NCBI GenBank assembly: GCA_037042185.1
Contig: JAXQJY010000024.1
Location: forward strand, 992,001 to 1,056,000
Direction of reading: 5' to 3'
From: Sordariomycetes sp. S80-01Y
Taxonomy: Eukaryota > Ascomycota > Sordariomycetes
Length of the DNA: 64,000 bases
How positions within the stretch are numbered: position 1 is the stretch's first letter; the number at the start of each line of letters is the position of its first letter. This document shows, piece after piece, positions 4,101-37,901 of the stretch. Below the pieces are notes generated by a model. The model saw nothing but the letters and a program-made list of their open reading frames with translations. It was not told where the DNA came from and ran no database searches. Made by a program: the position numbers and the translations under genes.

Positions 4101-4346
4101 GATATTATCTCAGCGTTTAACAAGGTGTCTTCTTCATCCTTTGAAATAGACACGCTGGAACTTTTGCAGTCGACTATGGACATCTGCGCGGACGAAGAGT
4201 GTGGTACAGGTGTTTCCCCACAGCAGAAGACCTTTGATATGAACTCTGGCCGTGTCGTGCCTGAGAAAGGCTTGGCATCCTCGATCATGTACCAAGTGCC
4301 GATCTGGGTGCGACTCAAGGGCTCAATCTACGGCGTTTCCCGTTAA
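1118..4346 (+). CDS. NACHT-type STAND NTPase (NLR-like)
   Basis: Predicted 1,060-residue protein in two exons: 1118-1540 and 1587-4346. The 46-nt intron has a GTCTCT donor, a GCTAAC branch site and a CCAG acceptor, and joins the two frames in phase 0. Residues 1-141 resemble the helical N-terminal domain often found in fungal STAND proteins (starting MAELAALGLAANVAQF), followed by a coiled-coil-like stretch. A NACHT domain follows: Walker A GKAGSGKST at about 267-275 and Walker B-like FFIDGLDEY near 375. The C-terminal half is long and shows no ankyrin, WD40 or TPR repeats that I can see, so the sensor part is unidentified. Family knowledge: such proteins act as signal-responsive switches in fungal non-self recognition and programmed cell death. 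Specific role here is inferred from architecture only. A further 3' exon cannot be excluded. Confidence 0.85.
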
Positions 4347-12461: not shown

Positions 12462-13807
12462 AGAGGACGAGATAAGCAGTGATGGATTGACGGGGTGTGA
12501 TCTTCTGATGGAGAAGGTTGAATAAGTGGCATCGTGATTGGAGATCGGTCATGAGGGGGATGGCCGCATCGGAGAAGAAGCTCCTAAGTATGACATTCCG
12601 AAACTACCATCATTGGGAAGGAGCGACCAAGGACATTACATAGCGACATGCATAGACTCGGTGCTTGAATGATTTATGACTCAGATTGATTTAATTACCT
12701 AGGTACTTATTTCTCGATCATATGTCCGTTTTCCGTTTCTCTTAATACCTAAGTAGTAGTCTAGAATTCAAACTCCGTTGACGGTGACTGCCAAGTTATT
12801 GTATACATGGCAGAACTTGGAAAGATCCATGTTACGCCTATTCGTAATTTGTCTAAGTTATCATATGAGTTGTGCGAATGTTATTCTATATTTATCAATT
12901 GATCTCTAATGACAGCGCAATAAAAAACCCTGTTGCATGACAGGTATAGGGTAGGTCAGTACGTCGGTCTGTGGGCTACAACCAGCGAGGCTGATCCCTT
13001 GTTAGCAACTGCTCAGTGACAAGGAAATGCATATCAAATGCGTTGATGAGACAAGCTATGAGAAGGAACCTTTGAGAGTCTCAGAAAAGAACCAAGTATT
13101 CTCAGTTGTGTCGCTGGCATGTCCACCCTCCTCTATACGCGCTGGGAGGCTGGAGTGCGCATGGTAGGGATCAAAGGATGGTCTCGTGCCGGGCTACCAA
13201 TAATAGAAGTGCCTCACCTCAGCATATTCTGCTGAGCCTCCAATTTGCTTTATACGGGGCATGGTAGAAGCAGCCTCGATCGAAACCCTTGCGATGGCTT
13301 GAAGTCTAAGGCTTTGATCCAACGAGCACCGATCTTTCCTCATTGAGATCATTTTGAACAACAAGAGAGAAGGTATAAAACGACAGACTTGATCCCATGG
13401 TTCTCATTATAGTAAATAAAAGGCGACATATAGACTCAGAGAATTTGGGTTGGCAAATCCGGCAACGATTGCCGTTGTCTTTTCATCACTTGACACTTGA
13501 GGTGGAGAGGCTGGGCTTACGCATCGGCACAGAAGAAGTTCCATGGTCTAGTTCTTTAAGACCGGCTGGTTTCTGCGATGCTCTAGCGTTTTCAGCTCAT
13601 GCAGCCGATCTCATGGATGAAGCTCTAGACTGAGAGCCTGATGCGAGCCGTGCGCCTCAGAGCCTCGTCTGAGCGGAAGAGCGGCTTAGACGGCAGGGTT
13701 CTTTACCCCCGCCTTCAAGAAAAAACACTTCATCACATTTCTAATGATCTTTCTTGAAAGCCTATGGTGAGACTTTGTTGAAATTTGCCCCTATCATTTC
13801 AAAAGCT
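12462..13807. other. AT-rich intergenic region
   Basis: Contains a markedly AT-rich stretch at about 12640-12930 with the palindrome TACCTAGGTA near 12698. A TATA-like TATAAAA lies at 13374-13380, about 430 bp before the next gene's ATG. Between them a 78-codon open frame (13397-13633) has no recognisable motif; it may be an upstream frame in the leader of the next gene. Confidence 0.45.
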
Positions 13808-16800
13808 ATGTCGTATCCTTCTGGATACTCTGACCTGCCAGAGGTCGTCCCATCAAGCGGCTATCCCTCATTCACACCACTCAAACGCCATGACCAACCC
13901 TCAAACACCATGCCACAACCGTCAAGCGCCTATGCCCATGGGCTAGAATACCGTCCAGCCCCTCCAACGAAAGCGCCGACATCGACGGACCCGGAATCGC
14001 CGCCAATCGCCCCGCAGTCTTCCTATCAGCAGCGCGGACAATGCTGTAATTGCAGGCGTACAGTCAAGATATGGAAGTGTGTTCAGTGTGATGACTCTTT
14101 TTGCGACGAATGCTGGCCAGAAGAACGTCCCCATCGGGTGAGAGCTGCCCCAGCTGCATGGCACCACTTGGCCGACTCCCCCGCTAACTCATGTTGCTCT
14201 GCCAGCCGGGTCGGGTTGGTATAGATGGCCGCCCTCATGAGAAGGTCGACGAAGAGGTCGTTGATCGGCTCCAACAAGTCTTTGGCCGCCTGTCCAAGCA
14301 AGAGCAAGACCTTCGCCACGAAAGCGACATCAGCACTACCTGGTTTGGGGTTGATAGGGAAGGAGATAGCTCCTATCTGCACTACTCGAACCGACTTATT
14401 GATATCCTGCAAGATCAAGCTGGGGATCGCCAAGAACGCTTTCCTCAACTCGTTTCGTTTGTAGGCCAGACGGGTAGGCTTGTCCCTCTGATATCTGAAG
14501 GAATCTCAAAACGTTGCTAAGATTTATCTCCGCAGGCGCGGGAAAAAGTACCATAATCAAGATGTTGATCAATCGTGAACAAGCACGTACCGAAACCACC
14601 GGCCAAGCCTCATCGCCAGTCCCAGGATTGGTCGGTGACAACATTCCAACAACCGGCAATGTTCATCTATACGCGGATCCTGGTACTCATCATGCGCAGA
14701 AGCCTATCTTGTATGCAGATTGTGAAGGCATGCAGGGAGGTGAGCATCCACCTAGGGGTCTGACACGTCGGGAGGTCATCGAGACGTCTCGGAAGCCCAG
14801 ACAGATGGTAAAGAACAAGCTGCGTAAAAGGCTCTCGTGGCCTGATCTGCCTAAGAAGCAGTCTCGAGAGTTTGCCGTTCGTACTTTGTTCCCACGAATA
14901 CTGTACACATTTTCCGATGTCGTCGTCTTTGTTCTCCGCGAAGTCAGGTACGATTCGCTCATTTGAACTCTATGGAGAAGGTGAACTGACGCACAATTTC
15001 AACCGCACAGAACATTTCAAAGTGAAGTCCTCAAACAGCTGGTCGTCTGGGGCGCCGCATCCGTGGACAAATCGCTGAACCAGCCGACCTTACCACACGT
15101 CATCATCGTCGTCAATGCAGCTGATAGTGGCATCGATGAGGGCCAGTGGGACCCCAATTATGCGACAAAAGAGCTGCTTCGTGACTACGAAAACTCCGTG
15201 CATCAAGTTCCAGAATTGCGCGAGATTCTCGCCAAGTTCGATGCACGAGAAAGACGCCCTCATACGACTAAGGAGCTCTTGGAACGATACTACTCATCAG
15301 TGACGGTCGTCAAGATACCTTCAAAGGGCCGCTATATGCAGATGGATGATCAGGTTGGAACACTGTACAATCTCATCTCGACAAAGTGCATCCAGTCGCA
15401 TGCCGACAAGAAGAGAATCCGCATGTCACTTAACGCCGAAAGACTTCCACAATACGTCAGCATGGCTTATGAGCATTTCTCACGGCGGTTGGATGAGCCT
15501 TTCGACTTCGTAGAGGCAGCGCGTCGCTGCGCTCCTCTGCCCCAGGGCTTCGGCGGGCATGTATTGAATCTGATTCTTTCCTTGTCTCTGCATAAGCATG
15601 GGTGGGACAAGAAACCAGAAGATCTCCTGAGTCGACTCAGCCCCTTGATCGCGTCGTGCATTATGCTTGCTGTCATTAGGGACAACACACAAGGTGAGAC
15701 CACAGATTGCATAAAGTTACATCAACGTAAATGCTAATATATCGCAGGCGCATACGAGACACTCTTGTGGGACACATACAGGGAGCCTCTCTACTCATGC
15801 CTGACAGAGTTCTGTGATAACTGGCTGAGCTGTTCCTTTGAACAGAATGGCATTCGCTGCTACAATGCGAAGAACTCTCACAGCAAAGGTCATCAGTCCT
15901 CCCAGGGCAAGATTCTCAGGCGTGGAGGCTATCAGTCATCCTTTGACCTGTCAGCCTTCTTCCACGTGTGGATGGAGGACATTGGCCGTAAGATCGACCG
16001 CCAAAACTTCGAGCTCTTAAACCAGGACTTCGGTGAAGAGACGCAGCACATCCATCGACTGCACCGCCAAGTTGTGGCGACGTTCTATCGAGAGGCGACA
16101 TCAAGAGAAGTGTCCCTTTTCAAAAGCCATCTGACCTGTCTTTACTGCGTGCGGAAGGTGCCCGAGAGTATTCTGCCGTGTGGACACATTCTGTGCAAGC
16201 CTTGCATTCAGGCTCTGGGGAAAGACAAAGAGCATGGTTGGTATGAGCTTGATTGCTGTCCGCTACATCCGAGAGAAACGCGTTGGCCGGAGAGGGCGTG
16301 CATCCGCTTCAAACCCAAAGATGCTGGAGTCCGCGTTTTATGCATGGACGGGTAAGTGAAGCGTAAGACTTGGTGGTATAGCCTCAGCTAACGGAGATTC
16401 CAGCGGTGGTGTCAGAGGACTCGTTGAGCTTGCAATCTTGCAGGCGATAGAAAGCGAGCTTTATGGTGCGATCCCGATTCAGAATTTCTTTGATCTCATT
16501 GTCGGAACGAGGTAAGATTTTCCAGCCTTGCAAGAGGTCACCAAGAAATCTGTGGAGTAATTGCTAGTGTTACTAACGTCAAAAGCACTGGCGGCATTGT
16601 TGCCCTAGGCTTAGGCATAAAACAATGGAGGGTTGCAGAGTGTCGACGTAACTTCAGGAACTTCGTCGAGCAGGCTTTCACTAAACGTCCCTTCAAGCCG
16701 CTGGCTATACTCAGCCACAAGAGCTACTACAAGACAAAGCCCTTGGAAGCAGTTTTGACGCAAGCTTTTGACAGCAACTCGCTGCTCTACGGAGGACCCA

Positions 16801-18405
16801 AGCCTGGCAGCTCAACATCGATCCGTGTCGCCATTACCTCGACGCTCGCTACCGAGAACAGACCAGTCATTCTATCCAACTACAACACTGGCGGAGAGCG
16901 AGACCATTGTGAGTCACATTTTGTCGTCTTCCGTCTCAAACATGACGACAGCTGACTCTTCGTCAACAGTGCCGTACCACTTCATTAGACCCCGTGAGCC
17001 CACAAGGGAGATGAAGGTTTGGGAAGCAGCACGAGCCACTGCTGCGGCTCCGCCGTATTTCAAGCCATATGTCAAGCCGGAGTCTGGAACTGCATTTGCT
17101 GATGGAGCAATTCATAATAATTGCCCCGTCAGAATTGCCGATTCAGAGCGCAAGTTACTATGGGAGGATGTGAGCGATTGGCCCGCAGACATGCTACTTT
17201 CACTGGGAACCGGTTTGAGCGGTGTCGACCGGGGCAGCAAGTCGTCGAGCAAGTTCTACGCTGGCTTCGGGGGGCCGATTGATCCCACTCAACATCGTAA
17301 CGTTGCAGGACTCAGCTACCTGTGGAGGACCGCAAGCAGCATCATTGATGACCAGCTCAACTGCGAGAAGATATGGAAGGACTACCAAGCGAATGTTGCG
17401 GCCCCGAGCAAGGCACATGGTGCTGAAGCGCGGCGCCGGAACATCCGGCTCAACATCACTTTTGACGGTGACAGAGCTCGTCTTGACGATATCAGCTGTC
17501 TGGACCGTATAGAGCAAGAAGCCCAGCGCCTGATTCAGGAAGACAAGCTCGAGATAACCGAAATCGCCCACAGGTTAGTGGCTAGCTGCTTCTACTTTGA
17601 TAAGACAGGATGCCCTCCGTCCAGAGTAACTGGAGAATATGTTTGCTACGGTAAGTTTGCTCTCTCCTTTGAGGCCGAGAAGCTACAATACTAATTGAAA
17701 TCGGTAGGTAATATTCGCTGTCGCCTTAACGAAGGCAGTGAAGATCTCAGGGGCCTCGGTTACATCTTGGAACGGCTCACACGCGGTACAATCTTCTCAC
17801 CACATTTCTATCTCCAGGAAAACTTCCAGGGATTGGATGAGAAGGAGCACGAGATACCTATACCCGTCGATACCATTCGGAATATGTGCAGTCGTGGATC
17901 GTTTCAATTGCCGACAAACCTAGCTATCAACGGCTCCGGCCAGTCCAGCTTGACACGGATCTCATTGCGCCTGCAATCCCAACCATATGGCAAGTCGTAC
18001 AACCTCAGCTACGGCGGCTCAATGAGACACACGGTCATCGAGCCTTATCTGTCAATCAGTGGGTTTCCCAGAGAGCTTTGGACACAGGACAATGCAATGT
18101 CACCGCCTTTGGATCTTGAGGATCAGCGCGACAACACCTCCAACCCGTGGAGCCCCGACTCATTCTTGGCTCCGTCCGCAGTTCCGCGTTCTGTGTCCGA
18201 CCCTGAAGTCCCAACGGTCCTGCGCAAGACCAGAAGTCGATTTATGAAGAGATCCTCGGGTCTCTCGGCTTGGGCCACACAAGGACACAGATATTCTGAT
18301 TCCAACGTCGCCAGCTTGACAATATTGGAGGATGACCCTGAAGGCTTGCGGTCAAGCACCGAAACGGACCCTACGAGCCCAGCGACCAAGTCGCTTCTTT
18401 ATTGA
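13808..18405 (+). CDS. B-box-like/GTPase-like/RING/patatin fusion protein
   Basis: Nine exons, 1,368 residues: 13808-14137, 14206-14473, 14536-14947, 15011-15693, 15748-16351, 16404-16511, 16586-16908, 16970-17650, 17708-18405; every junction has GT-AG signals and keeps the frame. Domain order: Pro/Ser-rich N-terminus; Cys/His finger (C82, C91, C94, C99, C102, H109); P-loop GQTGAGKST at 197-205, split by an intron; DxxG-like DCEG at 261-264; a NAAD box at 372-375 where GTPases have N/TKxD; RING finger about 695-738; patatin domain with oxyanion loop DGGGVRG (765-771), nucleophile GTSTGG (Ser 802) and DGA (Asp 954). The catalytic dyad is complete, so lipid acyl hydrolase activity is likely. 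I infer nucleotide-controlled activation, with the RING possibly adding ubiquitin-ligase function. Similar fungal proteins are often named FabD/lysophospholipase-like. A decayed copy follows directly. Confidence 0.82.
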
Positions 18406-18896: not shown

Positions 18897-21800
18897 AGCC
18901 TTCCAGACCAAAGTTTTGAAATAGTTGATCACATGGGCAGCTTCTTCAGTGGACAAATCCGTCAATCAGCCCAAGCTGCCACATGCCATTATCGTGGTCA
19001 ACGCAACTGATAGTCGCGTGGACAAGGCCCAATGGGACCCAAAGCATGCAACCGAAGAGCTTTTCAGAGACTATCAAGAGTCTATCCAGCAAGTCTCTGA
19101 GCTACAAGATATTACGAGCAACCTCAGCGCGCAGAACAAACGAGTCGACACGGCTAAAGAGCTCCTCGAGCACTTCTACTCCTCGGTCACGGTTCTGCGG
19201 ATACCTACGAAAGATCGATATAAGCTGCTGGATGAACAATTCTCGAAGCTGTATCGTCTCATTAATGAGAACTGCGCCCGCTCCCACCGGCATAAGAAAC
19301 AAATTCGCATGTCGCTCAACACCGTGCGGCTGCCCCAATATATCGGCATGGCGTTCGCCCATTTCTCGAAGAAGAAGGATGAGCCGTTTAACTTCTTAGA
19401 AGCATCTCGTCGTTGTGCGCCAGCACCTAGAGGGTTTGGTGGGCATATTCTCGACTTGATCGTGTCTCTGTATCGAATTGAAGGATCCAACTCCGGAGAC
19501 TGGCTCACAAGCATTTTGATCAGTCTCAGCCCACTGATTGCCTCTTGCATCATGTTGGCCGCATTGAGGGATAATACACAAGGTAGCAAGGCCTCCATCA
19601 TAATCTGGGGATCTGAAGTGGCCTGCTAACAGATCATAGGGGAGTATGTCGACCTGCTCAAGTTCAATTACCGGGAGATCCTCAAGAACTGTCTTATGGA
19701 GTTCTGCGACAATTGGTTGGGGTGTGCCTTTGTACATGATAAAGTGCGATGTCGGAACGCAAAGAACTTCCACCACAAGGGACATCAAGGACCTTCAGGT
19801 TACGTCTTCAATGGCGGGGGGTACCAATCGCCGGTGCACTTCCCGACTCTGTTTGAAAACTGGATGACTCAGATTGCCGCTGACATCACGCGACATAAAG
19901 CCCGGAATCAAGAAGAAGCGTACGGGAAAGAGGAGGACCTGATTCACGATCTGCACCAGGAAGTCGTACAGAGCTTCTACGAGCAAGCTACCACGGCGCT
20001 GGAGGTGCAGTTGAGGAGCCCGTGGACATGCCTGTACTGTCTCAGACGTGTCCCGGAAAGCACACTGCCTTGCGGGCATACCTTGTGCAAGCCATGTGTC
20101 AAGTCGTTAGGAACCTCCAGGGACCAGGGCGTGTTCGAGTTGGACTCGTGCCCTCTACATCCAAGCACGCTGTGGCGGCAGCCGGCGAGCATTCGTTTCA
20201 AGCCTGATGAAGCAGGCGTGAGAATGCTCTGTATGGACGGGTACGTGCAAGAGAGACATGAATAGAACAAGCTGATGATGGCCACAGTGGAGGGGTGAGA
20301 GGCCTCGTGGAGTTAGCCGTTCTCCAAGCCATTGAGAACGAACTAGGGGGATACGTCCCCATCCAGCATTTCTTCGACCTCGTCGTTGGAACCAGGTGAG
20401 ATGAGAATGATTGCACCCCTATAAGACCTGGAACTGATATGACAGCACTGGGGGATCATTGCCCTGGGCCTCGGAGTGAAGCAATGGCGAGTCTCGGAAT
20501 GCCAGGAGATTTTCAAGAAGTTAGCTAAGAAGGCCTTCACCCGGAGAGCGCTGGTGAAGGCTGTTGCTGTCAAAAGCAAAAGCTGGTACAGAACCAAGCC
20601 AATTGAGGAGGTTCTCAAGGCATCGTTTGGCGATGGTTTATTGTTCTCTGGCGGGGAAGAGAATTCCGAAGGTGGCAACTCAGGGCCCATCCGTGTAGCG
20701 GTAACAGCGACCTCCGCAACGGAAGGGAATCCCGTCATTCTGGCGAACTACAACACCGGGGCTAGGAGGACCAAAGGTATGTCAATCTCAAGGGCAACCC
20801 TGGCACAAAAGGCTGATTTCTTGTCCTCAGTGCCGTACTACTTCCTCCGACCGCACAGATCATCTCTCGAGTTCAAGATTTGGGAGGCGGCCAGGGCCAC
20901 ATCCGCAGCACCGTCATATTTCAAGTATTTTGAGAAATCAGAGACCAGAACAGCTTACGTCGACGGCGCAATCTACTACAACTGCCCCGTGCGGGTCGCC
21001 GAACATGAGCGGAAGCTAATCTGGGAGGAGGTCGGCGACTGGCCAGCTGATATCCTGCTATCTTTGGGCACTGGCTTGAGCTCATCTGAAGTGCAAGAAA
21101 GGGGCCATGACTCTAAGAGGAAATACTTTGACGTCGATCCGCATCAGAGCACTGACCGGCACGGTGATGTGGACGGATGGAGAGGTCTCTTCCGAACGAT
21201 CAAAGGAATGATCGATGACCAGCTCGACTGTGAGAAGACTTGGGAAGACTACTGCACGCAAGCTCCTCTGCCCAAAGGGGCACACCACGATGAGAGCAAC
21301 AGGCGCAACTTCCGGATCAACCTTACGTTCCCAGGTACGAAGCCGCGGCTGGACGATGTGTCGGACTTGCAAAGGCTGGAAGATGAAGCCAATCGCTTGG
21401 TTAAGTCTGGTAGCGTTATGTACGAGATCGTTGAGGTCGCACACAGACTGGTCGCGAGCTGCTTCTACTTCCAAAGGACGAAGTGCAGCGCCGGACAGAA
21501 GATTGGGTCATACGAATGCACAGGTGACTCTTCGACTCCCCAATCGTTAAGTGATGCTCCTGTACTTACGAGGCCCAGGGAACATCCGCTGCCGATTCAT
21601 CGAAGGGACACAAACATCAAAGGTCTTGGGAAGATCATGCGCAAATTCACCTTGGGCGCCGATTTCGTGCCCTTCTTCCACGTGCAGGAGAACTACGGCG
21701 CTCGCGACGAGGAATCTTTCCAAGCGCCCATACCCGATGCAACAATCCAGAGAATGTGCGACGTAGGGTCGTTCCGCATGCCTACGGATATCCTGATAGA

Positions 21801-21950
21801 GGGGTCCAGGCACTCGAGCGTCTCCCGCCTGTCGCTCTGCCTTCAGCCGGGCCATTACGGATCTCATAATGATCACAAAGACCCGCGAATCGATTAATCC
21901 GAGAGGAGCCTGCTATCAATCAGCGGTTTCCCCAGACCTCTGTGGGAAGT
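18897..21950 (+). pseudogene. Decayed tandem copy of the GTPase-RING-patatin gene
   Basis: Colinear with the upstream gene from its residue 337 onward. It keeps the same intron positions (introns at 19583-19639, 20241-20287, about 20396-20445, 20777-20830 and about 21525-21579), the NATD box, the RING (CLYCLRRVPES to CPLHP), DGGGVRG and the DGA motif (YVDGAIYYNCPV). Missing are the N-terminal finger and the P-loop part. The copy opens with a stop where the first copy has Gln, has no in-frame ATG near its start, and loses frame at the nucleophile region (about 20450) and again near 21610. Residual similarity to the C-terminus of copy one continues past the stop at 21897 to about 21950. The shared introns show DNA-level tandem duplication. 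An mRNA could still be made, but a full enzyme is unlikely. Confidence 0.75.
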
Positions 21951-23413
21951 CGGAGATTTGGAGGTACCGTTGCCTGCCAACCTTCGTCCTGCCTCTGGGG
22001 CCAGACTTTCGAGTGCACGCACTGCTGCCGGCCCTCGAAACAGACACAAGCCACTTCCGATACATGGCAACGGCCAGGGAAAGCCTCAGACGTGGTCACG
22101 GTTGAAGTCTCTGCTTGCAACAAGGAACTCTTCGTCGCCTCAGCTCCAAGAGGAGAAGGGAGGCGGCGAAGCAAGGACCAGCAGCACCACAGACCTGATC
22201 GAAAAAGAGACGGGGCTTTGAAATAGTCGAGGCGAATGTGCAGTGCAGATGCAGCATAGAATTTCAGCACATAACGCTGGATATATATTCAGACCATCGG
22301 CGTTGACGAACTTGGTTGCTGGGGGTAAAAGAGGCGTCACGGGGAGCTCTGCGTTGCGTGGTCGTGCTTATCGTCAGAATAGTGAAAGGCATTGGATAGA
22401 CCAGATGCAACCCGAGCTCCTGCAGGAGCAAAGGTTCTACAGCTTCAAGAGCCTACAGATTTCGAGATTACGTTGAGAACCCAATGCGTTTTGAATGCCA
22501 TTCTTTGGGGGGGATACGACGACATGGCCGAGCAATGTCTCAAACAAATGTGTCGTGCTCGCAGCAGCCATGGACTGGACGTGTCGGCGCCACAACCGAG
22601 GTCGCGGTCTGGAACATGTGTCAAACAAGAGTGCAAGACACAGAAACCAGAAATCAAGGGTGCCATGTGCTCAACGGCGCAGATCGTTCGAGAGGCCAAG
22701 CTTCTGCCAATGCGAGGCTTCGGATGGGGAGCGTTCCGGTGAGAAGATGAATGAGCCTATTTGAGGGGGGTGTGCGGGGAAGACGAGCTGTTGGAACGAG
22801 GATCGGCGGGGAATGCTTTTGTTGGTCGTGTTCTAGCGCTTCGATGCTAAGCCAAGCGCGTAACCCGAGGGATTGATCAGAGTTAAGGTGCAGTTAAGGC
22901 GCATTTAAGGTAGTAATTATAGGGGGCGACGGGGCGAGGCAGGGCAACGCGCCAAGCGATCATGTTCGAGCCAACTGCCCGCAGTGGAACTCATCTTCCC
23001 ACTACAGGTTCGGGCCCCGGTCCGGCCCACCAACGTTGCATCCCATCATCAATCTCATAGCACAATTGACAGGGTCCTGTCCGTCCCTGTCGGTCCTGTC
23101 GCAATCAATCGACATTTCCGCCAAAAAGGCTGTCGTCCGTCTTCGCCATCTTGTTTCTGTCACCTCATCTCATCAGCAGTGGCTCTTCCTTCCTTCTTGC
23201 CGAGTTGGCGCGCCTCATCCTCTCGTCGTCATAGATCAATCAGACCTCACCTCTCAATTCGACGACCCCTCACCCCGTCAACCGTCGAACCTCCAATCTC
23301 GCTCAGCTTCCAGCCGACGCCCCGCGATCCGACAACGTGGCTGAAAGAGCGCGACCTGTCCTGCCATGAGCTGCCACTAATCAATCCCCTACGACTCGAC
23401 GCTGACCGCCACA
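21951..23413. other. Intergenic, upstream of ABC transporter
   Basis: No gene recognised. Three copies of a TTAAGG-type element occur between 22883 and 22912. The last 400 bp are C/T-rich and look like the 5' leader of the transporter gene. Confidence 0.45.
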
Positions 23414-27418: not shown

Positions 27419-28262
27419 CTGCCGATGACTCCGACCCAAAATGCTGAATCTCTTTCCTTCTGATGTTTCACGCTGGACGTTGTTGAGGGTGAAGCAGTAT
27501 TGTTGTTGGCTGTCAAAGCGTCATCAGAAGCTATGACGCGCGTCCAACGAACCTCTGATGACTGCTGAAGACGGCGGAGTGTGAGCATCGGAACCTCTGA
27601 TCATGTGTAAACTTTGCCGTGAATTTGCATCCGGCCGTTCCAGTAGCGACTGTAGAAAGTCATTCATCTCTCGATAAGCAGTCACTCAATCCATCGGCGG
27701 ATTCTGACTTGTTACAGTGACAGGGCTGGTTGTGACATGGTTGCCTATTCAACTCGCTAGCCTAGGAGCTCAGCTCATAATCAACAAAGGGTGCCTCGAG
27801 ACACTCGGCCTGGCTCTCAACACAAAGCACCGCCAACCTAGCGAAGTTCATTGAACTATGATGTGAGATCAGGTGTCTAGTGGATCACAGCTGACGCACT
27901 TTATTCCTTGTACCTGCGTGGCATGGCGTTTTGGCGGCAGGGACGGCACGCAATTCTGCTCTCATCTCACCTTCAGGCCAAAGAAACATTTATTTCACGG
28001 CTGCTAAACATCACGAACACTGTATTCTATTTCAGTCTCAGACTTGGTGGAATTGGTGGTTGCTGCTCCTAAAACTCCTGTGGCCCTGTATCTCCCCGAA
28101 CCATGTGGCAACCCATCCATTCCACCCCTAGACAGCGGCCCTATGGTCTTCCCGACCCGTCCCTGTTTGCTTCTGAACTACTTCATCCTCCTGTCAGGAT
28201 CTTGTGACGGCCTTTCATCTTTAAAGGAAAGGGGCGTATTGGTCTTAGCCGCTTGTCCGTGC
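27419..28262. other. Intergenic, 3' of transporter
   Basis: Region between the convergent ends of the ABC transporter (+) and gene A (-). No gene or repeat recognised. Confidence 0.5.
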
Positions 28263-29060
28263 TTAAGCTCCGGGCTGCCCGTTCTCGGCTTCGTCGGTCT
28301 CGGCCTGTTCGCCCTGGGGCTGCGCGTTGTCGGACTGGGGATCTTCAGGCTGCTCATTTGCTTCTTGGGTCAGAGCCTCCTCCATCTCTCCGAAAGTAAA
28401 CGCACCGTGAATCGCCTCATCAGCCTCGGCCCCTAGCTCACCCACCAGGACTCCCCACTCATACTCATCATACAACGCCTCGTCCCAAGCGGCCTGCAGG
28501 TCGAGCGGCTCGGAGAGCATGGGCAGGTCGTCTTGAGAAATGTTAATCTCGTACTCGATCCCAGCCCCGCACCTGCACCGGGCCCGGAACGAGCCCCAGA
28601 TCGTCGACATGTCCAGGTCCATCATGTGGCGGACGGGCTCCCTGCGGGCCCTCTCCCACAGCGTCTTGGCCCAGAAGGACCACAGCTCCAGCCTCAGATG
28701 TTTCTAGCAAATGGGGTTGTGAAGACCTCTGACCGAGTACTCGGGAACCTCGAAGAGTGAGTAAGGGGCGAACTCCATGACGTTCTCCTCACGCAGGGCG
28801 CCGATGGTGGCCTCCCAGGCCCGCTCTACCTCTTCCGTGGTCAGAGTCGGCTCGCCGAACTGCTCGGGGCTCCCTGGGAACACGAAGTTAGCGGTCGGTT
28901 TGGCACGCATGGGTGGGTGGAACTCACAGTAAGCGGGAAGGGGGTACTGCTCTCTGGCACGAGCCGCCGCTTCCAGGACGATGCCGAAGACTTCGCTTTG
29001 GAGACGCTCGACGGTCTCTGGGTCCACCTCGTGGAGCAGGGGACGACCAGTGCCACGCAT
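28263..29060 (-). CDS. Gene A: uncharacterised family with in-frame UAG
   Basis: Exon 1 29060-28928, a 54-nt phase-1 intron (GTGAGT, GCTAAC, CCCAG), exon 2 28873-28263. To the in-frame TAG at 28706-28704 it encodes 100 residues; read past it, 247. Before the TAG: EPTLTTEEV, then LHNPIC. After it: KHLRLELWSFWAKTLW, a C-x-C pair (RARCRCG), DDLPMLSEP and an acidic Gln/Glu-rich tail. Genes B and C have a UAG at the same place and gene D has Trp. The four share PGPxLT-like, H-x3-C, R-x2-LW, C-x-C and LPML-like motifs, which shows coding constraint on both sides of the stop. The H-x3-C plus C-x-C arrangement could bind zinc (inference). Function unknown. Expression of the long form would need A-to-I editing (UAG to UGG) or readthrough. 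Confidence 0.7.
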
Positions 29061-29082
29061 GCTTCCTGGTGGATCGTGGGTT

Positions 29083-29115
29083 GTTGCTTGAAGGTTGCTT
29101 GAAGGTTGCTTGAAG
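29083..29115. repeat. Three tandem copies of an 11-bp unit
   Basis: GTTGCTTGAAG is repeated three times head to tail at 29083-29093, 29094-29104 and 29105-29115, just upstream of the gene A start codon. It may lie in the 5' leader. Confidence 0.85.
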
Positions 29116-30534
29116 CTGTTGTGGCACGGAAGATGTGAAGCGGCGAAGCTATGGAAGAAGTGATGGTAGATGTGAAAGGACGAGAGAAGAAAGGTTTGAG
29201 TTGGGGTTTTTCTTGGGGGATAGAGATGAGATCAGAGGAACAGTGGGGTGGAGATCAGAAAAGGGGCTAGTCACATGCAGCGTGGAAGGTCCCAGAGCCC
29301 CTTTCCAGCAGCTGTTCGCAACTGCGTCACGGTCTGGAACAGCTATGGCGTTTGCAGAAGTTCCTGCTCTCACGTGCAACTGCAGGGTTGACCGCCAGAG
29401 CAAGGCACAGCACCTTGAGAGTCCCTGCCAAATCTTTGCGCTTCGTGTGGGAGCCTTGCTCCGTCAGTGGACCTTTCTCGGATCGTGCTGGCGCATCTGT
29501 ATCTTCAGGGGCTCTGGGCTCGGAAGAAAGACTCCTAGCGAGACGGGAATAGAGACTATTTACTGGTTGTCAGAGTATTCAAAGAGTGGAAAACTACAAG
29601 CGTCTTGAACTCTCTCAGGAGGTCTGTCCACGGATCCCGCTCTTGATTATTAACGACATTGAACTTTCATTCGTCAAGGAGAGTGGCGCACGGCTCAGAA
29701 TAACTATGTGACACGGCTAACAGCAGTGGGGATGTTCCAGCGCCATAGACTACGCGAGCTGACATTGACTGCTTTTGGATGGCGGTGAAGTGGATGGATC
29801 AGTGAAGAAGAATTGAACTGTTTTCGTCTCAGCGAAATCTCGCAGGCGGCGACGCCCATTGACGATACCTTGCCTTCAGCGAGGTCGAAGCGCGTGGATC
29901 AGCGGAAGACGACGCAAGGGTTTATGCAACGAATCAAATGGCTTTGTCATCTTATGCAGAGCAAGATATTGCAGCCTCCTCTGCATTATGACTTCTCCGT
30001 AGTCAAGTACAGATGCGACGCTCCAGGATCCCGATGCAGTCTGAAGGTGAGAACAAAGACACAACAAGCCTTTTCAGCATTCAGTCTTGCCACCGAAGTT
30101 ACATATAGATTTTAAATAGCCAGAAACCATAGTAGACTTCAAGAGAAGACCTCAGTTCATGTCATACCATAGGGAGCTCGTGTCACAGTGTGGTCAATAC
30201 GGAGTGCTATTGCTCTAAGTCGGATGGGATGCCAGTCCAGGTTGGGTGATCTCGCTTCCAAATCAACCGTCCACTTGACTGAGATCATCCCTCCGAGCTC
30301 GTTACAGCTAAACCGTTGCTCTCCATCTCCATGTTCCTGCGTCCAGGTAAAAGCTTTAATCACCAGCATCGCAAGCTAATTCTCAAGCCAATTCTCCCTG
30401 CCCTGAGTTGCTTCTTCCATATCCTGATGCTTGTCGTATCTCAAGTCTGTGGTGCCTCTTGTAGTGGCGTCGAAGCTCTTCTTCATCTAACATCAATAGT
30501 ACCGCTGAATGAAGTCGCAACCCGAGATGGAAAC
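29116..30534. other. Intergenic between genes A and B
   Basis: Holds the promoter of gene A on its left side. Otherwise only short open frames without motifs. No further family member found. Confidence 0.45.
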
Positions 30535-31178
30535 CTAGGCGGTGCGCCTCTGCTTCAGCATGGGAAGGTCCGTGGCAGGGTTCATGATCATGCCGAAAGA
30601 TCGGTCAGTCATCCCGCACTGGCAGTAGACGATGCCTGGGCGGTCGATCGGGAAATACCGCGGATTCCGAACCTCTACCCGCTGCAAAGCGCGTTGCGCG
30701 TGTTCAACCCAGCGCTGGAACAGGTAAATCCGCAGGCGGCGCTAGCACACTGCATCATGACCGCCTTCAGCGAAGCCGTCGTCGAAGATGGGGAAGACAT
30801 CGTTGGCGACCTGTCCCCTGAGGAAGAAGGCGTTGTTGATCCCGAGGAAGGTTTCAGGGGCGGTAAGCTTCGGACCGGGAACCTCTGAATAAATATGCGT
30901 TAGAAGGGGGTCTGCTCGAGAGGACCTTGGGGAAACTCACCGCCTGGGAGAAGGGTAGCAAGGGCATTGGCGAGGCTTGAAGCTGGGATGGTTGGGACGA
31001 TCTGGTTGCTTGGCGTAGACTGACCATCAGCAGCGACGGTGGAGAGGTTCTCCATCGAGGCAGCGCGGTCCGTGGCCCTGAAAGCCTGGAGCTCATCGAG
31101 GTCCGTGTCGTTGCAGAGACGGATCTCGGTCAAGTTGTCAGGCTCGCCATCATTGTTCTGGGCACGAGTACGATCCAT
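30535..31178 (-). CDS. Gene B: uncharacterised family with in-frame UAG
   Basis: Exon 1 31178-30941; 56-nt phase-1 intron with GTGAGT donor, TTCTAACG branch and TTCAG acceptor; exon 2 30884-30535. The frame has a single TAG at 30744-30742, giving 126 residues before it and a further 68 after it. Exon 2 opens with EVPGPKLTAPE, matching YPGPTLTLQE of gene C and the equivalent part of A. The UAG follows HDAVC and precedes RRLRIYLFQRW; further on are YCQCG and ATDLPMLKQ, both conserved in gene A. Exon 1 is hydrophilic and has no recognised motif. The intron position and phase are the same as in A and C, so the three form a clade. The 5-bp GGCGG/CCGCC complement (30765-30761 with 30739-30735) could enclose the UAG in a hairpin. 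Function unknown. Confidence 0.68.
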
Positions 31179-31813
31179 TGTGCCGTTGAGTGAGGGTTGT
31201 CAAGGATGTGTAAAGGTGTTTTGGTTTCTGAGAGTTGCTTTGACAGCAAACGAAGGCTTGTGAGTTTGGGTTTCGTGGATGAGAAGAAAGGAAAGGAGAG
31301 AGGTTCGGGGGCGCTGAAAAAGCTGAAGGGGGTGCAGCGGAGCCCCTGGACTCTTGCCAGCTCCCGAATAGTGACTGTTTACATGTGCATAAAGGAGCTG
31401 TTCACTAGCGCCCAGCTGAACGCCCTTGGGACGCTCGGGGCCTGACCGTAGCAGGGTCACCCGTTGAGCAAGCTTCCTTGACCTGGCCGGCTCTAGAGTT
31501 GAATCTATCACTTTCTTGGGTCAGTATGGGAGATCGCTCCCACTTTATTTTCTACGCTTAGCCTTGCGTTCATCAGTCCTACCAAGACACTGGTGGAGAG
31601 TAGACGCAGAACATGCGTTGGCAAGGCCTTCACGCAAAGCTAACATTCGCTATTTTGAGTGCTAACAGCTTCATGAGACCTTTGCTATCTTTGTCTGCCA
31701 TACAAATGACTTTCATTTCCATCAACAAAATCACCTAGACGAAGGTGCAGTCCTTGTCTCACTGATTGTACCTGCTGCTGCTCGTTCCCCGACAATCACC
31801 CTGGGAGAGTAGC
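31179..31813. other. Intergenic between genes B and C
   Basis: Upstream region of gene B and downstream region of gene C. No gene recognised. Confidence 0.45.
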
Positions 31814-32420
31814 TCACTCAACCACAGGTTGTGTCTCCCGCAGGCAAGGTAGACCATTTTCCTCATCAATAGCTACCGAGTAGACCTTGTCAGGAACGCA
31901 GATGCATCGATAAGTAAGCGGGCCCGCGGCATTCAGCCACTCAATGAAATCGTGGATCCCATCGTTGGGCCGCCCTTGCTGATAAATAGTCCAGAGATGC
32001 GTCGCCAGTTGGATCCACAGCCACTGACGCATGTGCACCTAGCAATGTGTGGAGTGATAACCCTGAACCTGGATGGTTTCGTGGTTGTAGAAGGGCATGA
32101 GCCATTGGATCGCGTTGAACTCGCGGTGCCGAGCGATGTGCACTGCGTGGGCAACTTCTTGAAGCGTCAAGGTCGGTCCAGGATACGCAGCTGAGAAGTC
32201 AATAGTTGCTCCCGGGGAATCAGGCAGGAAGGGGAAGTTCTTGAAGGCACTTACAGTCTTGATCAACTAAAGTAGACTCCTGGGAGCTAGCGACAGATCC
32301 GTCCGATCCGTCTGGGGTGTTGTCGTTGGGCTGGGCTTCAGGCGCCGTGGCTTCCGGGGAAGGCTCGTCTGGATGGCCTTCGACAGGCTCATCGAGGTTC
32401 TCCTCTCTGGAAGGGGACAT
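31814..32420 (-). CDS. Gene C: uncharacterised family with in-frame UAG
   Basis: Exon 1 32420-32255; 64-nt phase-1 intron (GTAAGT donor, TTGAC branch, CTCAG acceptor); exon 2 32190-31814. A TAG at 32041-32039 divides the frame into 105 residues and a further 74. Exon 1 is acidic and Pro/Ser/Asp-rich. Exon 2 starts SAYPGPTLTLQEV; the UAG follows GYHSTHC and precedes VHMRQWLWIQLATHLW, then YRCICV and NGLPCLRE. Spacing from the UAG to C-x-C (about 44 residues) is nearly the same as in genes A and D, and no insertion is needed to align gene D's Trp with the UAG. This argues against an unrecognised intron at this point. The function is unknown. The protein is probably small and soluble, with no signal peptide or membrane segment. 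Confidence 0.68.
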
Positions 32421-33310
32421 TTTGTTGGTCGACGTGGTGACGTTGACAGGTAGTCAGATTGTGTTCCCACCGTGCTGCGTTGTGCGTAAGGGAGAAAGGA
32501 GCTGGAAGTGAGGCAGGTAATCTGAGTTTGGGCGGGGGATTTTTCAAGCTCGTGACCATAGCAGAAGGCCGAGCTGTCAGCAGCTGCCACTAAATTAGAA
32601 AGAGTCCCGCGTTCGAAGAGTCCTGGAGCGCGCTGTCTGCCCTGGAAAGCTAAACATTCGGATGACGAAAGCTCCAGTCCGATTATCCACCGTGACTGAA
32701 GAGACAAGTTCTCGATCAAAGGGCCCGAGTATATTCAAGGTATGTGGAATTTCCTCGCCGAAATTCGGAAGGCTAGGTTCGAGCCAGCCGCGTTCAGTAC
32801 CAGGTACACTGTTCCAAGAAGACCGTGTCCGCAGGCATCGAGCTTCCGCCACCTCCGCGAGATATATGAGAGATTAATGTTTTGCTTGCTGTCTGCCGGA
32901 AGTCTCCTGTCTTTGTACAGTACAGTCAATCGGAATACTACTAGTTGATTCATCTCAATCTCGCAGTGCGAATCAACAGTGTCAAAGACGCGATGACCAG
33001 GGGAATTTTAGGCCGTCTGCCCTTCTGGAGGGTAGAATGGAATCCAGGGATATAATATTTTGTTCAGCTAAAGTCTCGCGCCACGCCGGTCGCAGAGAGC
33101 CTGGGCTTAGCAGCTACCTCATCTCCCTGAGCTCATCACAACACAATAGTCACTCGAGATCGTCATGCTACCTTCTGTCTCTGGCATCCTTCGGCTCTAG
33201 CGTTGTAATTTGTCTCAATCAATTTCGATTAAGATACCCAAAGCGTCCATGCTAATTCCCAGCCGAAAAGATCGTTGGAGATCCGCCTTGCTAATCTAGA
33301 CGCCATCTAG
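32421..33310. other. Intergenic upstream of gene C
   Basis: Contains the gene C promoter. From about 32950 the sequence has short open frames only. No motif recognised. Confidence 0.4.
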
Positions 33311-33704
33311 GACAATGCAAAGGCTCCCCCGAACTCGAGCAACCTCGATACTGCCTTTGAAACATAGAACACAATTTCGGGTCTCCATCCAAGTACAGAC
33401 ATTCGATACCATGTCTCAGGCTTCAATAAAGTAGAAAAAGATGCCTTTAGAATATTGGGGCCTCTTCTGCCCGAGGATATGAAGCCCTACCTCCTGATCA
33501 GCAACTACATGTCTGAGCAATAGCGCTGCCACGTTGCGTGTCTTGAGGCTGAGATCCCCCTGATAACTGGATCAATGTCTTCAAAAGATCGCTGAGTTAC
33601 TGCGCAAGTGCTGGCACAGGACAGCTCTGGGACGATCTTAGATGATATGAGTACACAAACCCTCAAAGCCGCCCGATTAGCACCACACGATCCGACCGAT
33701 GATT
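33311..33704 (+). pseudogene. Decayed coding frame of unknown family (fossil)
   Basis: One frame over about 130 codons reads like protein (for example GFNKVEKDAFRILGPLLPED and KPYLLISNYMSEQ) but carries several breaks. It lies in an otherwise empty, rather AT-rich region. I do not recognise the family; it could be a host gene or part of a mobile element. The pattern would fit repeat-induced point mutation, which is inference. Confidence 0.35.
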
Positions 33705-34626
33705 GAAACAATCTTTTCAAACAAGACACATCAGAAGATTCAGTTTAAAGTGGTGCTCCTAGTAGTCTGATTTCGGGAGCGGCATCGACGAACCCAAAAC
33801 AATGCCCTTAGTCAATGCGGGCTCCTTCTTTCTATCCTCTTGGACAAGCCTTCAATCAATAGATCTGAACTTGTGTGGCGAACGAGTGGAGGTTACATTC
33901 AACTTTCAGATCAACCAAACATTTCACCTCTGGTCCAAAGAGCCTACGAGCTAAATTAAACCGCTTAACCCAGATAAGAATATCTGCGTTTCCAGCTAAC
34001 ACTTCTTGTCACCCAGTTTTGAATGCACAAGTACCCTCCCGAGGGAAATCTCCTGATACATCATCCCCTCAAATTTATCGAATACAATAACCAAACCCCC
34101 GTCACTATTGAAGGCAACGTTACATAAGCCCTTCATGCTTTTGCTGAGCTTCTGTTCCATTTTGTACTACAATCACCGACAGCCACACCTGACATAGGCC
34201 ATATAACGTCAAACAGAACCTAAATTCTCAATTCCAAAAATCAACGTTTTCTTCAAGTGTCACGTCACATATAGAAGAGGAAAGGTCACTCGCTTGTGCA
34301 CTTTGTCAAGTTTCTGGCAAATCAGGTCATTTCCATTGGTATGTGTCTCTCCCTATTCTCCTTTTGCTTTATTTCGCCAGTTTGTTGTTTACCCCTTTTT
34401 TTGCCCTTTTCTTCCATGTCTGTACTAAGCCGGCGACTCCTCAAGAACCCGCCACTTGTCTGTTCTGTTCTGTTTCTGTAGATAACCCTCATCGTGCGCG
34501 TCTCCAGCAAGTAGAGAGTGCTTCAGAACGACGCATCACAATACATGGATTTCTACCGTGTCAATTTGGCATCAGACATTTGTCTGTAATCTGGAAAGCA
34601 AAAGTCTGCCTGACGATGTCGTGGGC
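33705..34626. other. AT-rich gene-poor stretch
   Basis: Short open frames only, elevated A/T and many stops in all frames. Probably degraded DNA of the same kind as the decayed frame on its left. No terminal repeats seen. Confidence 0.4.
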
Positions 34627-35094
34627 TTAGTTCCTCTTGAAGGAAACCGAGCCAGCAAAAATATCCATCTTGTAAATGATAGAAGTTCCACAACAGATGC
34701 AGTAGTAATGCTTGTCGTAAGCAGGCACGTCTAAGGTTTCTGCATGGAGTGGCTCCCTGGTCTTGCCAGTGCGGATCATGTTGGTCTGGCAAGCCTTGCC
34801 GTAGCCAGTCCAGAGCTGCTGACGCTGCTTGCTCCAGCAACCAAGGGAGTGGCCGCCCAGAGTATGATCATGCGGGACATCGACACGGTACTCGTTGAAA
34901 GTACCCCTCACAACATCGCCCTCGATAGAGGAGGCCTCATGGAAGTAGAGCTTGGCACCTGGATAGAAGCCAGGCTTGGAAGCAGGACGAGCAGCCCTGG
35001 CAGCTGCGACATTGGCGAGGATCTCCCGACGACTTTTCTCAAGATAGTCAGGATCGTTGTACTCCAATTGACCAGAAACACCACGGAAAGGCAT
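34627..35094 (-). CDS. Gene D: family member with Trp at the UAG position
   Basis: 155 residues from Met 35094 (MPFRGVSGQLEYNDPDYLEK); the frame is open to 35280 but the upstream part looks like leader, with a possible GTAATT donor. It belongs to the same family as genes A-C: FYPGAKLYFHE aligns with YPGPTLTLQE, and GGHSLGCWSKQRQQLW aligns with GYHSTHC-UAG-VHMRQWLW. The codon after the conserved Cys is TGG at 34836-34834. C-x-C occurs in YYCICCG at the same spacing. Unlike A-C it has no intron before the PGxxL segment. It therefore represents either the ancestral state or an independently evolving branch. The sequence has several His and Cys (DVPHDHTLGGH) that could bind metal. No known domain recognised. 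Confidence 0.72.
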   Translation of the reverse strand: MPFRGVSGQLEYNDPDYLEKSRREILANVAAARAARPASKPGFYPGAKLYFHEASSIEGDVVRGTFNEYRVDVPHDHTLGGHSLGCWSKQRQQLWTGYGKACQTNMIRTGKTREPLHAETLDVPAYDKHYYCICCGTSIIYKMDIFAGSVSFKRN

Positions 35095-36191
35095 GTTCGC
35101 GATGTCAGAGATGGTGATTGATCTTGGTTCGAGTAGAGTGGTGCTTCTCGCAAGTCGCTTGTCTTTGGCTTGAGATAGGTTTGATAGAAAATCAGTAGAA
35201 GTCGGAATTACCTTTGAAATCGAGGAGTACTTATAGTTCGAACTGAATAGTGACTGGGACTTGGGAGTTTCCATTATCAAGGATATATCCGACGCTATTC
35301 ACTGATGCAATCTTTGGAACACGGCCTGCAGTGTGTGAACAAGGACGCATTGCTTGAGCGCCGCATGATTTTATAATACAGGATTTCGCTCTTGCTTCTC
35401 ATTCGGTAGTGTACTATCTAGAGTATCACGAGGCTATAGTGACTCTTACCCCTACTTGAGCCCGACAGCTTTTGGCTAAGACTAGCCGGGCTGGAACTGG
35501 CTTCTTTCCGCAGGCAAAGCGTGCAATTTGCTGATCCAAAGGCCATTGAAGCTCTTTAATTCACCCGAGAATAGCTGCATTCATGAGACCTGCACTTCTA
35601 GTTCTGCGCCTATGGAGGTACAAATGTTCAGGGGTCTGCCGAACAAATCTGACATAGCACAGGGATACTTCCACTCGAAATAAAACAGATCCGATGCGTT
35701 TTTGGAGCACTTGCAGGAAAAAATCTGAGAACAGAGGCGGCGACACCTGTATCACTTTTAGGACCGTATCGTCGCTTATACGGCCATACTGGGGATCCTC
35801 TGCATGCCAAAGTCGAGAGCATCGCACTGACTTGAGCCTGTCATCGTTCCTTCAACACAAGCTGCGATCAATGGACTGATTAATAACGCACCAGATTATG
35901 CATGAATCACTGTTGTAAACATTTAGTTTCCGCATCTAGGCATTGTCCATTGCCTAGCCAAAGAATCGTGTGCCGGGCCGCGTAATCGCCACTTCGGCTA
36001 CTCGTGTCAATCCCGAATATGATGGGGCAGCACCAAGAAGGTCGATCAAGCCATATGGAAGCACCACATCTTTGGGCTCAGAGGCTGGAATTTGAAGGGG
36101 ACTGTAGCTTCCGTAGGTGGGCCGAGGGTGTGGGGAGAGATGGGCGTGCAGGAACTCACGGATTTTCGAGGAGAAGGGCGTGCAGAAAATT
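35095..36191. other. Intergenic region upstream of gene D
   Basis: Promoter side of gene D followed by sequence with only short open frames. No clear gene. Confidence 0.4.
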
Positions 36192-36212
36192 ACCAAAGTT
36201 TCAAACTTTGGT
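36192..36212. repeat. 21-nt perfect inverted repeat
   Basis: ACCAAAGTTT and its exact complement are separated by one base. A C-rich run (about 36222-36246, mostly C with a few A or T) follows within 10 bp. It may be a hairpin or a dyad binding site; no gene-level context decides this. Confidence 0.8.
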
Positions 36213-37805
36213 GCTTTTCTGTACCCCCCCTCCCCCCCACCACCCCCGCGCGTTCACCTTGAACTTCTTTCGCTGGGCCTACTCACGCTTAGAACCTTCG
36301 TCTCTCCCCCTTCGTCTCCCATCCACACACTCCAAAAATTGGATCTGACGCAGGTTCTGCGGCTCAACATTAAGTGGTCAAGCTTTGAGCCCAGGATCAG
36401 GTCAGACGTTGGGCTTTTGTACTTGCTCCAAAGGCCAGTGATGGTTCAAGGGCGGCCGAGAGAACCTATGAAGAGAATCCCATCGAGCCAACATGGACGA
36501 AGCACAGGCCCGACATCATCTCATCAATTCTCTTATAGTTATGTATCTACGTAGTGTGTTACACCATCACAATAAGCGTCGTTTCGACTTTCCTCGTAGC
36601 AGCTGCCCTGCAGCATGCTTCTGCCAGCCCTGTGAACTCTGGAGGAGTGTGAGGTTGTCGACGGCCCAGTTGTGCTCCGGCGGAACGACAGCGCTGCTCA
36701 TGGAAACGCTGTCGAATGAAACTATAGGATGGCATCCGTATAGATCAACAACAAGTTCTGGTCATCGGGCTGGATTAGTGGTCGATACGAGCATTCAACA
36801 GTGTTTCGGCTTCATGGCTATCTATCTACTTGACACTTTGTGGTGGAACGCGATTGGAAAGGTTAACCAGGATGTATTGATCGTCCACTTTGAGACAAGG
36901 GTCAGACTCCCAACGGCTTCGTCGCACTATAAAGGCTCATGTCCGCTACAGTATGGAAGACGACAGTTTCACCACGATTCTCTGACATTCCATATTCGTG
37001 TGCTGGTCGAGCCACGGCTCGCAGGTGCTCTTGCAATGGAAATATTCACCGCTATTTCTCAATTTTCTACCGAAAATATGCTCCAAGGATAACACGATGC
37101 GTAAAGAGTGTAAAAGAATAAAGGCTTGGCTCCCCCAGATCGTAGCACCGGGACTGGAAGGAACACAAGCATCCTCAAATAGGCAATCTCGGGGCCGGTA
37201 ATAATGGGTCCCGGTCCGGACGCCGGATGCCCCGGACAGCACGACCGGTCGTAAGCATCCACAAGATCATGCCCAACGAGTTGTTATTCCTCGCCGGAGA
37301 TTTAAAACCTTTGTCAAGTAAACTGCTGCTTTCATTCCAATACCAGTGCTGTTCAGACGCATGACAGAGCCTTGATCGACTTCGCCAGTGCCTGTATCAA
37401 TTATCACGTCCCGGTGTAGGACTGATTGCGATCCAACCACTCAAACGCCCAGATTCAATGGAAACCACCTCAATCTGGAAATTTTGCATTAAGTGGCGTC
37501 CAGATGGATAAGGACAATCTGTTTGACTCATTGGCGCACTCTTCTTCCCGTTCCCCGGAGTGCTGTCAGGCTGTCCACTTCTCCGGAGTTCCCCAGCTAC
37601 GACAATATATGGCCTAATTTGAACGCTCATTCTCAATTCCACGAATTTCCATGGATCCCGTCGTTTCTGAGTAGAGTCAGAGACCTCATACTGTCACGCC
37701 CAACATGTGGACCGCGGTGCGGGCTGGACCCTAGCATGGCAAAAAAACAACTCATGGGTCTCAGCGGGAGCCTATCCGCCCATGGGCCCAAAAAGATTCA
37801 ATTCT
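36213..37805. other. Gene-poor region
   Basis: Starts with a C-rich homopolymer-like tract. An open frame of 199 codons (36493-37092) exists, but its composition is not convincing as a functional gene. Nothing else was recognised before the tRNA gene. Confidence 0.4.
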
Positions 37806-37901
37806 TGGGGTTAATGCGGATCGAACGCATGACCTTTAGATGATTCAGGATTGAAGTTATGTAGCTTCAATCTAACGCTCTCCCAACTGAGCTATAACCC
37901 C
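37806..37901 (-). tRNA. tRNA-Phe(GAA) with intron
   Basis: 96 nt including a 23-nt intron after the base 3' to the anticodon. The acceptor stem GGGGTTA pairs with TAACCCC, the A box is TAGCTCAGTTGG, the anticodon stem is TTAGA/TCTAA around loop TTGAAGA (anticodon GAA), and the T arm contains GTTCGATCC (B box) in a GCATG-like stem. The discriminator base is A. The removed intron begins CTACATAACTTC and can pair with the anticodon region as usual for such introns. Confidence 0.93.

What the first reader, a model, noticed from the sequence alone, without database searches (positions are those of the whole stretch)
28263..32420. Three tandem paralogues carry a UAG at one conserved Trp codon: predicted A-to-I mRNA editing (UAG to UGG) targets
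Seen: genes A, B and C (minus strand) each have one in-frame TAG (28706-28704, 30744-30742, 32041-32039) directly after a conserved H-x3-C. Paralogue D has TGG in the gap-free aligned position (34836-34834). Protein-like conservation continues after the stop in all three: R-x2-LW-like helix, C-x-C about 40-45 residues on, then DLPML/DLPML/GLPCL. The three have diverged strongly, share a phase-1 intron, yet keep both the UAG and the open downstream frame. Known: sordariomycetes such as Fusarium, Neurospora and Sordaria edit A to I in sexual tissue, preferring UAG, and some genes with a premature UAG become full-length (UGG, Trp) only there. Inference: this is such a family, expanded in tandem. 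Programmed readthrough is the alternative.
Basis: partly seen in the sequence, partly recalled or inferred. Interest (0 to 1): 0.92.

Follow-up and report, generated by a model that had tools for sequence, protein, structure and literature searches.

The report
Fungal gene trio sharing one stop
[quoted passage not shown] this is a known kind of gene switch, but it has not been shown here.

Summary
Genes A, B and C each carry one in-frame TAG at the stated coordinates, directly after H-x3-C; paralogue D has TGG there. Protein similarity continues after the stop: over the next 17 codons the anchored score is not reached by any of 20,000 random registers, nor by any of 6,483 neutral simulations matched for DNA identity. 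Nine columns are invariant in all four paralogues, including H and C before the site and C-x-C after it.

No credible in-frame intron removes the TAG, RIP is absent, and no recalled leaky-stop motif follows it. So the post-stop part was selected as protein, and some bypass of UAG is likely. A-to-I editing (UAG to UGG) explains this best: it is documented in filamentous ascomycetes and would restore the Trp seen in D. There is no RNA evidence. The hairpin test is inconclusive, and the fungus's class and editing enzymes are unknown.

The family matches nothing in Pfam and has neither the zinc fingers nor the neighbouring deaminase of ZAO/CHE1. It looks like a new, tandem-duplicated member of a known kind: genes with premature-stop correction.

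The parts
28263..29060 (-). Gene A: exon 1 29060-28928, intron 28927-28874 (phase 1), exon 2 28873-28263; 247 codons counting the internal stop, plus the final stop
   Evidence: codon-usage score best in the true frame before and after the UAG
28704..28706 (-). In-frame TAG of gene A (codon 101), after HNPIC
28266..28703 (-). Gene A frame after the UAG, 146 codons, R-x2-LW and C-x-C, then a long acidic tail
30535..31178 (-). Gene B: exon 1 31178-30941, intron 30940-30885 (phase 1), exon 2 30884-30535
30742..30744 (-). In-frame TAG of gene B (codon 127), after HDAVC
30538..30741 (-). Gene B frame after the UAG, 68 codons
31814..32420 (-). Gene C: exon 1 32420-32255, intron 32254-32191 (phase 1), exon 2 32190-31814
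32039..32041 (-). In-frame TAG of gene C (codon 106), after HSTHC
31817..32038 (-). Gene C frame after the UAG, 74 codons
34627..35094 (-). Paralogue D, single exon, 155 aa, no internal stop
34834..34836 (-). TGG (Trp) of D in the gap-free aligned position

Best explanation
A, B and C are a tandem family of small proteins, probably intracellular and metal-binding, whose mRNAs carry a UAG inside the conserved domain. Unedited mRNA gives a truncated product that lacks the second half (C-x-C) of the conserved H-x3-C...C-x-C set. Adenosine deamination of the UAG (read as UGG, Trp, as in D) gives the full-length protein, so editing acts as an on-switch. Shown: the shared stop, the paralogy (weakest for B), and protein-level selection on the part after the stop. 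Inferred: that the bypass is A-to-I editing, by a Tad2-Tad3-Ame1-type or other deaminase, that the residue is Trp, that it is tied to sexual development or stress, and that the four residues bind metal.
For: Post-stop protein similarity anchored at the stop, with random-register, out-of-frame and neutral controls. Nine invariant columns spanning both sides of the stop. Codon-usage score best in the true frame on both sides in A, B and C; A's UAG ranks first of the 25 interior stops with coding-like flanks, out of 139 examined in six frames. All three stops are UAG, which A-to-I editing turns into a Trp codon, while D has TGG. No in-frame intron with branch motif and good donor, no RIP (0 of 254 bins), no CUA or CARYYA (recalled motifs) after any of the three stops (bases). 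Published precedents: PUK1 plus about 70 genes with UAG in the ORF in F. graminearum, and CHE1/zao.
Against: No transcript or peptide data. Hairpin-loop probability of the A in genes A, B and C is 0.23, 0.42 and 1.00 in +-30 nt folds (mean of 393 background UA sites 0.37) and falls to 0.05 or less at +-50 nt in all three. Flanking bases match the reported weak preferences only in part. No deaminase among the 75 of 75 long ORFs scanned, although the known machinery need not be local. B and C stand out little in the codon-usage scan (9th and 22nd of 25). The fungus's class is unknown, and editing is not known in all ascomycetes. The constraint on the post-stop part could in principle predate the stops.
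Confidence: 0.62

Rival explanations
1. Programmed translational readthrough or a suppressor tRNA decodes UAG in these mRNAs, giving a low level of full-length protein, without RNA editing.
For: The same conservation data fit any mechanism that bypasses the stop.
Against: The six bases after the stop (AAACAT, CGCCGC, GTGCAC) are unlike one another and lack CUA or CARYYA (recalled motifs; bases). The only tRNA that Rfam finds in the window has no sign of being a suppressor, but its anticodon was read only by eye and the rest of the genome is not held.
Confidence: 0.13
2. A rare or stage-specific intron, perhaps using the TGCTAG as 3' splice site, removes the stop.
For: All three stops read TGCTAG, an acceptable fungal acceptor. 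Gene A has a GTGAGG donor 89 nt before the end of the TAG with CTTAC/CTCAC branch-like motifs. Gene C has one in-frame 150-nt candidate with a GCGAGT donor but no branch motif.
Against: 0 of 57, 28 and 20 candidates for A, B and C are in frame with both a branch motif and a donor score of 5 or more. The 8 gene A candidates with a donor of 5 or more of 6 share that one donor, are all out of frame and end in an early stop. An intron ending at the TAG would also remove the conserved H-x3-C.
Confidence: 0.07
3. The stop is genuine: the short N-terminal proteins are the products, and the downstream part was lost so recently that it has not decayed (pseudogenes), or is kept for another reason.
For: No expression data exclude it; the protein-level constraint could predate recent stops.
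Against: It needs three independent recent nonsense changes at one codon (B and C have 36 and 54 codons one step from a stop), or one old stop followed by long conservation, which the neutral runs make unlikely (all three frames open in 0.40-0.47% of runs near the observed divergence). No RIP.
Confidence: 0.1
4. The downstream part is translated separately by re-initiation or from an internal promoter.
For: In gene C an ATG is the third codon after the stop.
Against: A and B have no ATG at that position; the post-stop parts lack the H-x3-C half.
Confidence: 0.05

Closest known systems
PUK1-like premature-stop-correction (PSC) genes of Fusarium graminearum, Neurospora and others (PMC4817773, PMC11156358)
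   Same: In-frame UAG in an otherwise conserved coding frame, UGG restored by A-to-I editing; a false intron is tempting to gene callers.
   Different: Here three tandem, strongly diverged paralogues share the site in a protein family without any Pfam match; editing not observed.
CHE1 / OLD-ZAO module (PMC11169179, PMC12754623)
   Same: UAG correction in a gene family (zao-1, zao-2); in CHE1 the zinc fingers lie after the stop.
   Different: No zinc-finger match after the stop, and no deaminase among the 75 long ORFs of the window.
Spore-killer genes with edited stops (rfk-1 of Neurospora, SKC1 of F. verticillioides; recalled, no call)
   Same: Small fungal proteins whose reading frame is extended by UAG editing in sexual tissue (recalled).
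   Different: Here the part after the stop is conserved between paralogues; no sequence comparison was possible.

Membership tests
Fungal PSC-edited genes (UAG to UGG) | One in-frame UAG inside an otherwise open, coding-like frame | tested here: met
   strong for A, moderate for B, weak for C by codon usage
Fungal PSC-edited genes (UAG to UGG) | Protein conservation continues after the stop | tested here: met
   weaker for B in gapped pairs
Fungal PSC-edited genes (UAG to UGG) | A homologue has UGG/Trp at the site | tested here: met
   Paralogue D only; orthologues out of reach
Fungal PSC-edited genes (UAG to UGG) | Edited A lies in a predicted hairpin loop (reported for 62.4% of sites) | tested here: inconclusive
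   +-30 nt minimum-energy fold: 1 of 3 (C). Loop probability for A, B, C: +-15 nt 0.33, 1.00, 0.99 (393 background sites: 0.62); +-20 nt 0.70, 1.00, 0.99; +-30 nt 0.23, 0.42, 1.00 (background 0.37); +-50 nt 0.04, 0.01, 0.05; +-100 nt 0.05, 0.37, 0.09
Fungal PSC-edited genes (UAG to UGG) | A-to-G in RNA, not in DNA | not testable with these tools
   no RNA data
Fungal PSC-edited genes (UAG to UGG) | Host is a Sordariomycete or another class with mRNA editing | tested here: inconclusive
   Gene content fits a filamentous ascomycete (my judgement); class not determined; no genome held
OLD-ZAO / CHE1 | C2H2 zinc fingers after the UAG | tested here: not met
   no Pfam match for the pieces or for exon 2 with X at the stop at E up to 10
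OLD-ZAO / CHE1 | Adjacent OTT_1508-like deaminase gene | tested here: not met
   no deaminase family at E up to 0.01 in any of the 75 ORFs of 150 aa or more (list; scans); exons shorter than that were not scanned
UstYa-like (DUF3328) proteins | Pfam match; HxxHC motifs (recalled) | tested here: not met
   no Pfam match; of the four paralogues only C shows HxxHC
RIP-mutated pseudogenes | High TpA/ApT and low (CpA+TpG)/(ApC+GpT) | tested here: not met
   0 of 254 bins pass; TpA/ApT 0.33-0.95 in the bins from 28001 to 35251

The most novel reading that the evidence does not exclude
A protein family unrelated to ZAO that independently evolved, and kept through tandem duplication and extreme divergence, a UAG placed between the two halves of its metal site, so that one deaminase switches a whole gene array at once from inactive stubs to active regulators.
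Probability: 0.25. Interest if true: 0.75.

Novelty: new member of a known kind. Interest (0 to 1): 0.58.

Why it matters
If edited, this would be an old UAG kept while the rest of the proteins diverged almost beyond recognition. That would be strong evidence that a premature stop in a fungal gene can be a selected control element and not a tolerated defect. The three paralogues and the UGG sister also form a natural series for finding what directs the editor to a site.

Tried and rejected
Relatives elsewhere: the two profile scans could not start because the alignment has no conserved stretch. Single-protein scans gave no relative for D in viral contigs or for A's post-stop part in genome contigs and viral contigs. 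C's post-stop part gave one locus, L001; the match lies inside a long ORF that I read as a phage terminase, and I dropped it as chance. B was not used as a query. These collections are prokaryotic and viral by description, so absence says little.

Solved structures: one match for D at E 0.51, none for exon 2 of A. A fold of D with three sibling rows reached mean pLDDT 43 and was not searched further. A first alignment of separate pieces was misaligned and not used. The AA9 comparison did not place the fungus.

Stop-flanked open frames in the patatin-like genes (stops at 15735, 17692 and 19627) looked like further cases but lie in intron-like stretches with GT...AG ends (my reading; the loose rule saw intron candidates at two of the three). 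Of the other 19 interior stops listed, 17 lie antisense to evident genes by my reading; two (45026 and 7117, plus strand) do not and were not pursued.

RIP, an in-frame intron, and UstYa or ZAO membership were tested and rejected. The hairpin test was kept as inconclusive.

Novelty searches showed no title about a tandem family with a shared UAG in the rows listed; searches had more papers than rows. The library is open-access only, and Qi et al. 2024 (Sci Adv), on restorative editing of PSC genes, was not held.

Full report
What is there. On the minus strand, four genes lie in a row: D (35094-34627), C (32420-31814), B (31178-30535) and A (29060-28263). A, B and C each have one short phase-1 intron (54, 56 and 64 nt, donors GTGAGT, GTGAGT and GTAAGT, acceptor CAG) 6 to 10 residues before a conserved Leu; D has none. 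Each of A, B and C has one in-frame TAG after H-x3-C, and D has TGG at the gap-free aligned codon.

Is it a family? Gapped local alignments against 1000 shuffles gave, before the stop: A-B 189, A-C 1, A-D 190, B-C 32, B-D 45, C-D 23 shuffles at or above the observed score; after the stop: A-B 11, A-C 0, A-D 1, B-C 46, B-D 388, C-D 37. So A, C and D are related, and B is related with support from the intron position and the anchored test. A four-member profile finds no fifth member in the window at better than E 3.4, and the repeat search saw only short, 71-83% alike direct matches, so the duplications are old. Nine columns are invariant in all four: L, E, G, H, C before the site and R, L, C, C after it. 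An H-x3-C plus C-x-C set suggests a metal site, which is inference only; the structure model was too poor to test it (mean pLDDT 43). No Pfam family matches the pieces or exon 2 with X at the stop. None of the four starts with an obvious signal peptide (my reading).

Is the part after the stop protein? With the stop as anchor and no gaps, the 17 codons after it score 20, 31, 18, 7, 4 and 15 for the pairs AB, AC, AD, BC, BD and CD. The sum, 95, compares with -110.6 +- 22.7 for random registers (0 of 20,000); the +1 and +2 frames sum to 9 and -5; one of 106 shifted registers ties the B-C score. Neutral simulation was run at five mutation levels, 4000 runs each. The observed three-pair score of 58 was reached in 1727, 296, 21, 2 and 0 runs as mean DNA identity fell from 0.62 to 0.53, 0.45, 0.41 and 0.38. 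Among the runs within 0.04 of the observed identity of 0.39 (0+117+1564+2380+2422 = 6,483) none reached it; all three frames stayed open over 68 codons in 0.40-0.47% of runs at the last three levels. Shuffled post-stop DNA is open over its full length in 0.8%, 13.4% and 3.6% of cases for A, B and C. Third-position GC is 0.77, 0.78 and 0.59 after the stop against 0.75, 0.69 and 0.63 before it. The codon score is best in the true frame on both sides in A, B and C, weakly in C; DNA identity by codon position shows no clear pattern. Among 139 stops in six frames with long open flanks (29 TAG, 30 TAA, 80 TGA), 25 have coding-like flanks on both sides; A's UAG ranks first, B's 9th and C's 22nd, so that scan alone would not have picked C.

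What it is not. No in-frame GT/GC...AG intron with a branch motif and a good donor removes the stop: 0 of 57, 28 and 20 candidates; gene C has one in-frame GCGAGT candidate of 150 nt without a branch motif. Gene A has a GTGAGG donor giving 8 candidates, the shortest 89 nt ending at the TAG itself; all are out of frame and end early. This is the sort of false intron that annotation introduces at edited stops. RIP indices are ordinary (0 of 254 bins RIP-like). The bases after the stops share no readthrough motif (motifs recalled). No deaminase family appears in any of the 75 ORFs of 150 aa or more.

How it most likely works. Something must get ribosomes past UAG. In filamentous ascomycetes a documented way is A-to-I editing of UAG to UGG: PUK1 and about 70 further genes in F. 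graminearum, CHE1 in hyphae, and zao-1/2 on virus infection. That all three stops are UAG, and that D has UGG, fits. The published preference for hairpin loops does not clearly show here: in +-30 nt minimum-energy folds the A is in a stem in gene A, an interior loop in B and a hairpin loop in C. Loop probabilities average 0.55 against 0.37 for 393 UA sites of 12 coding sequences at +-30 nt and 0.77 against 0.62 at +-15 nt, and at +-50 nt they fall to 0.04, 0.01 and 0.05 (averages mine). All three have G at -3, C at -2 and U at -1, then GAAA, GCGC and GGTG; the reported weak preferences are G at -3, U at -2, G at +2 and A/G at +3 and +4, so the fit is partial. Whether the trigger is sexual development, stress or virus cannot be told.

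Limits. No whole genome is held and the collections gave no relatives, so the class of the fungus, its Ame1, and orthologues with UAG or UGG are unknown. Gene content (NPHP3_N/DUF7791 NLR-like protein, Zn2Cys6 factor with Fungal_trans_2, AA9, cutinase, ABC transporter, short introns) fits a filamentous ascomycete (my judgement).

What I read. Parts 1 and 2 of 3 of PMC12754623 and PMC11156358; found passages of PMC11169179, PMC4817773, PMC11087585 and PMC7306014; other papers as search listings only. Honda et al. (OLD-ZAO) and Qi et al. were not read.

Verdict. The editing interpretation is likely but unproven, and it would make this a new, tandem-expanded member of a known kind.

Noticed in passing
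window 37806-37901, minus strand: A tRNA gene (Rfam tRNA, 59.4 bits), apparently with an intron, that ARAGORN with bacterial settings missed.
   Followed up: partly
window 13800-18405 and 18925-22221, plus strand: Two neighbouring related genes with RING-like and patatin-like stretches; the first also has a P-loop-like GAGKST, and the second copy seems to lack the N-terminal part (my reading).
   Followed up: partly
window about 1118-4346, plus strand: NLR-like gene with NPHP3_N, NACHT and DUF7791 domains.
   Followed up: no
window 48474-48968, minus strand: Cutinase domain, E 1.9e-42.
   Followed up: no
window 36176-36228: Inverted repeat, 26-nt arms with 1 nt between them, 85% complementary.
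   Followed up: no
window 28792-28704, minus strand: GTGAGG donor with CTTAC/CTCAC and the TGCTAG of the stop codon: a possible false-intron trap for gene annotation in gene A.
   Followed up: yes
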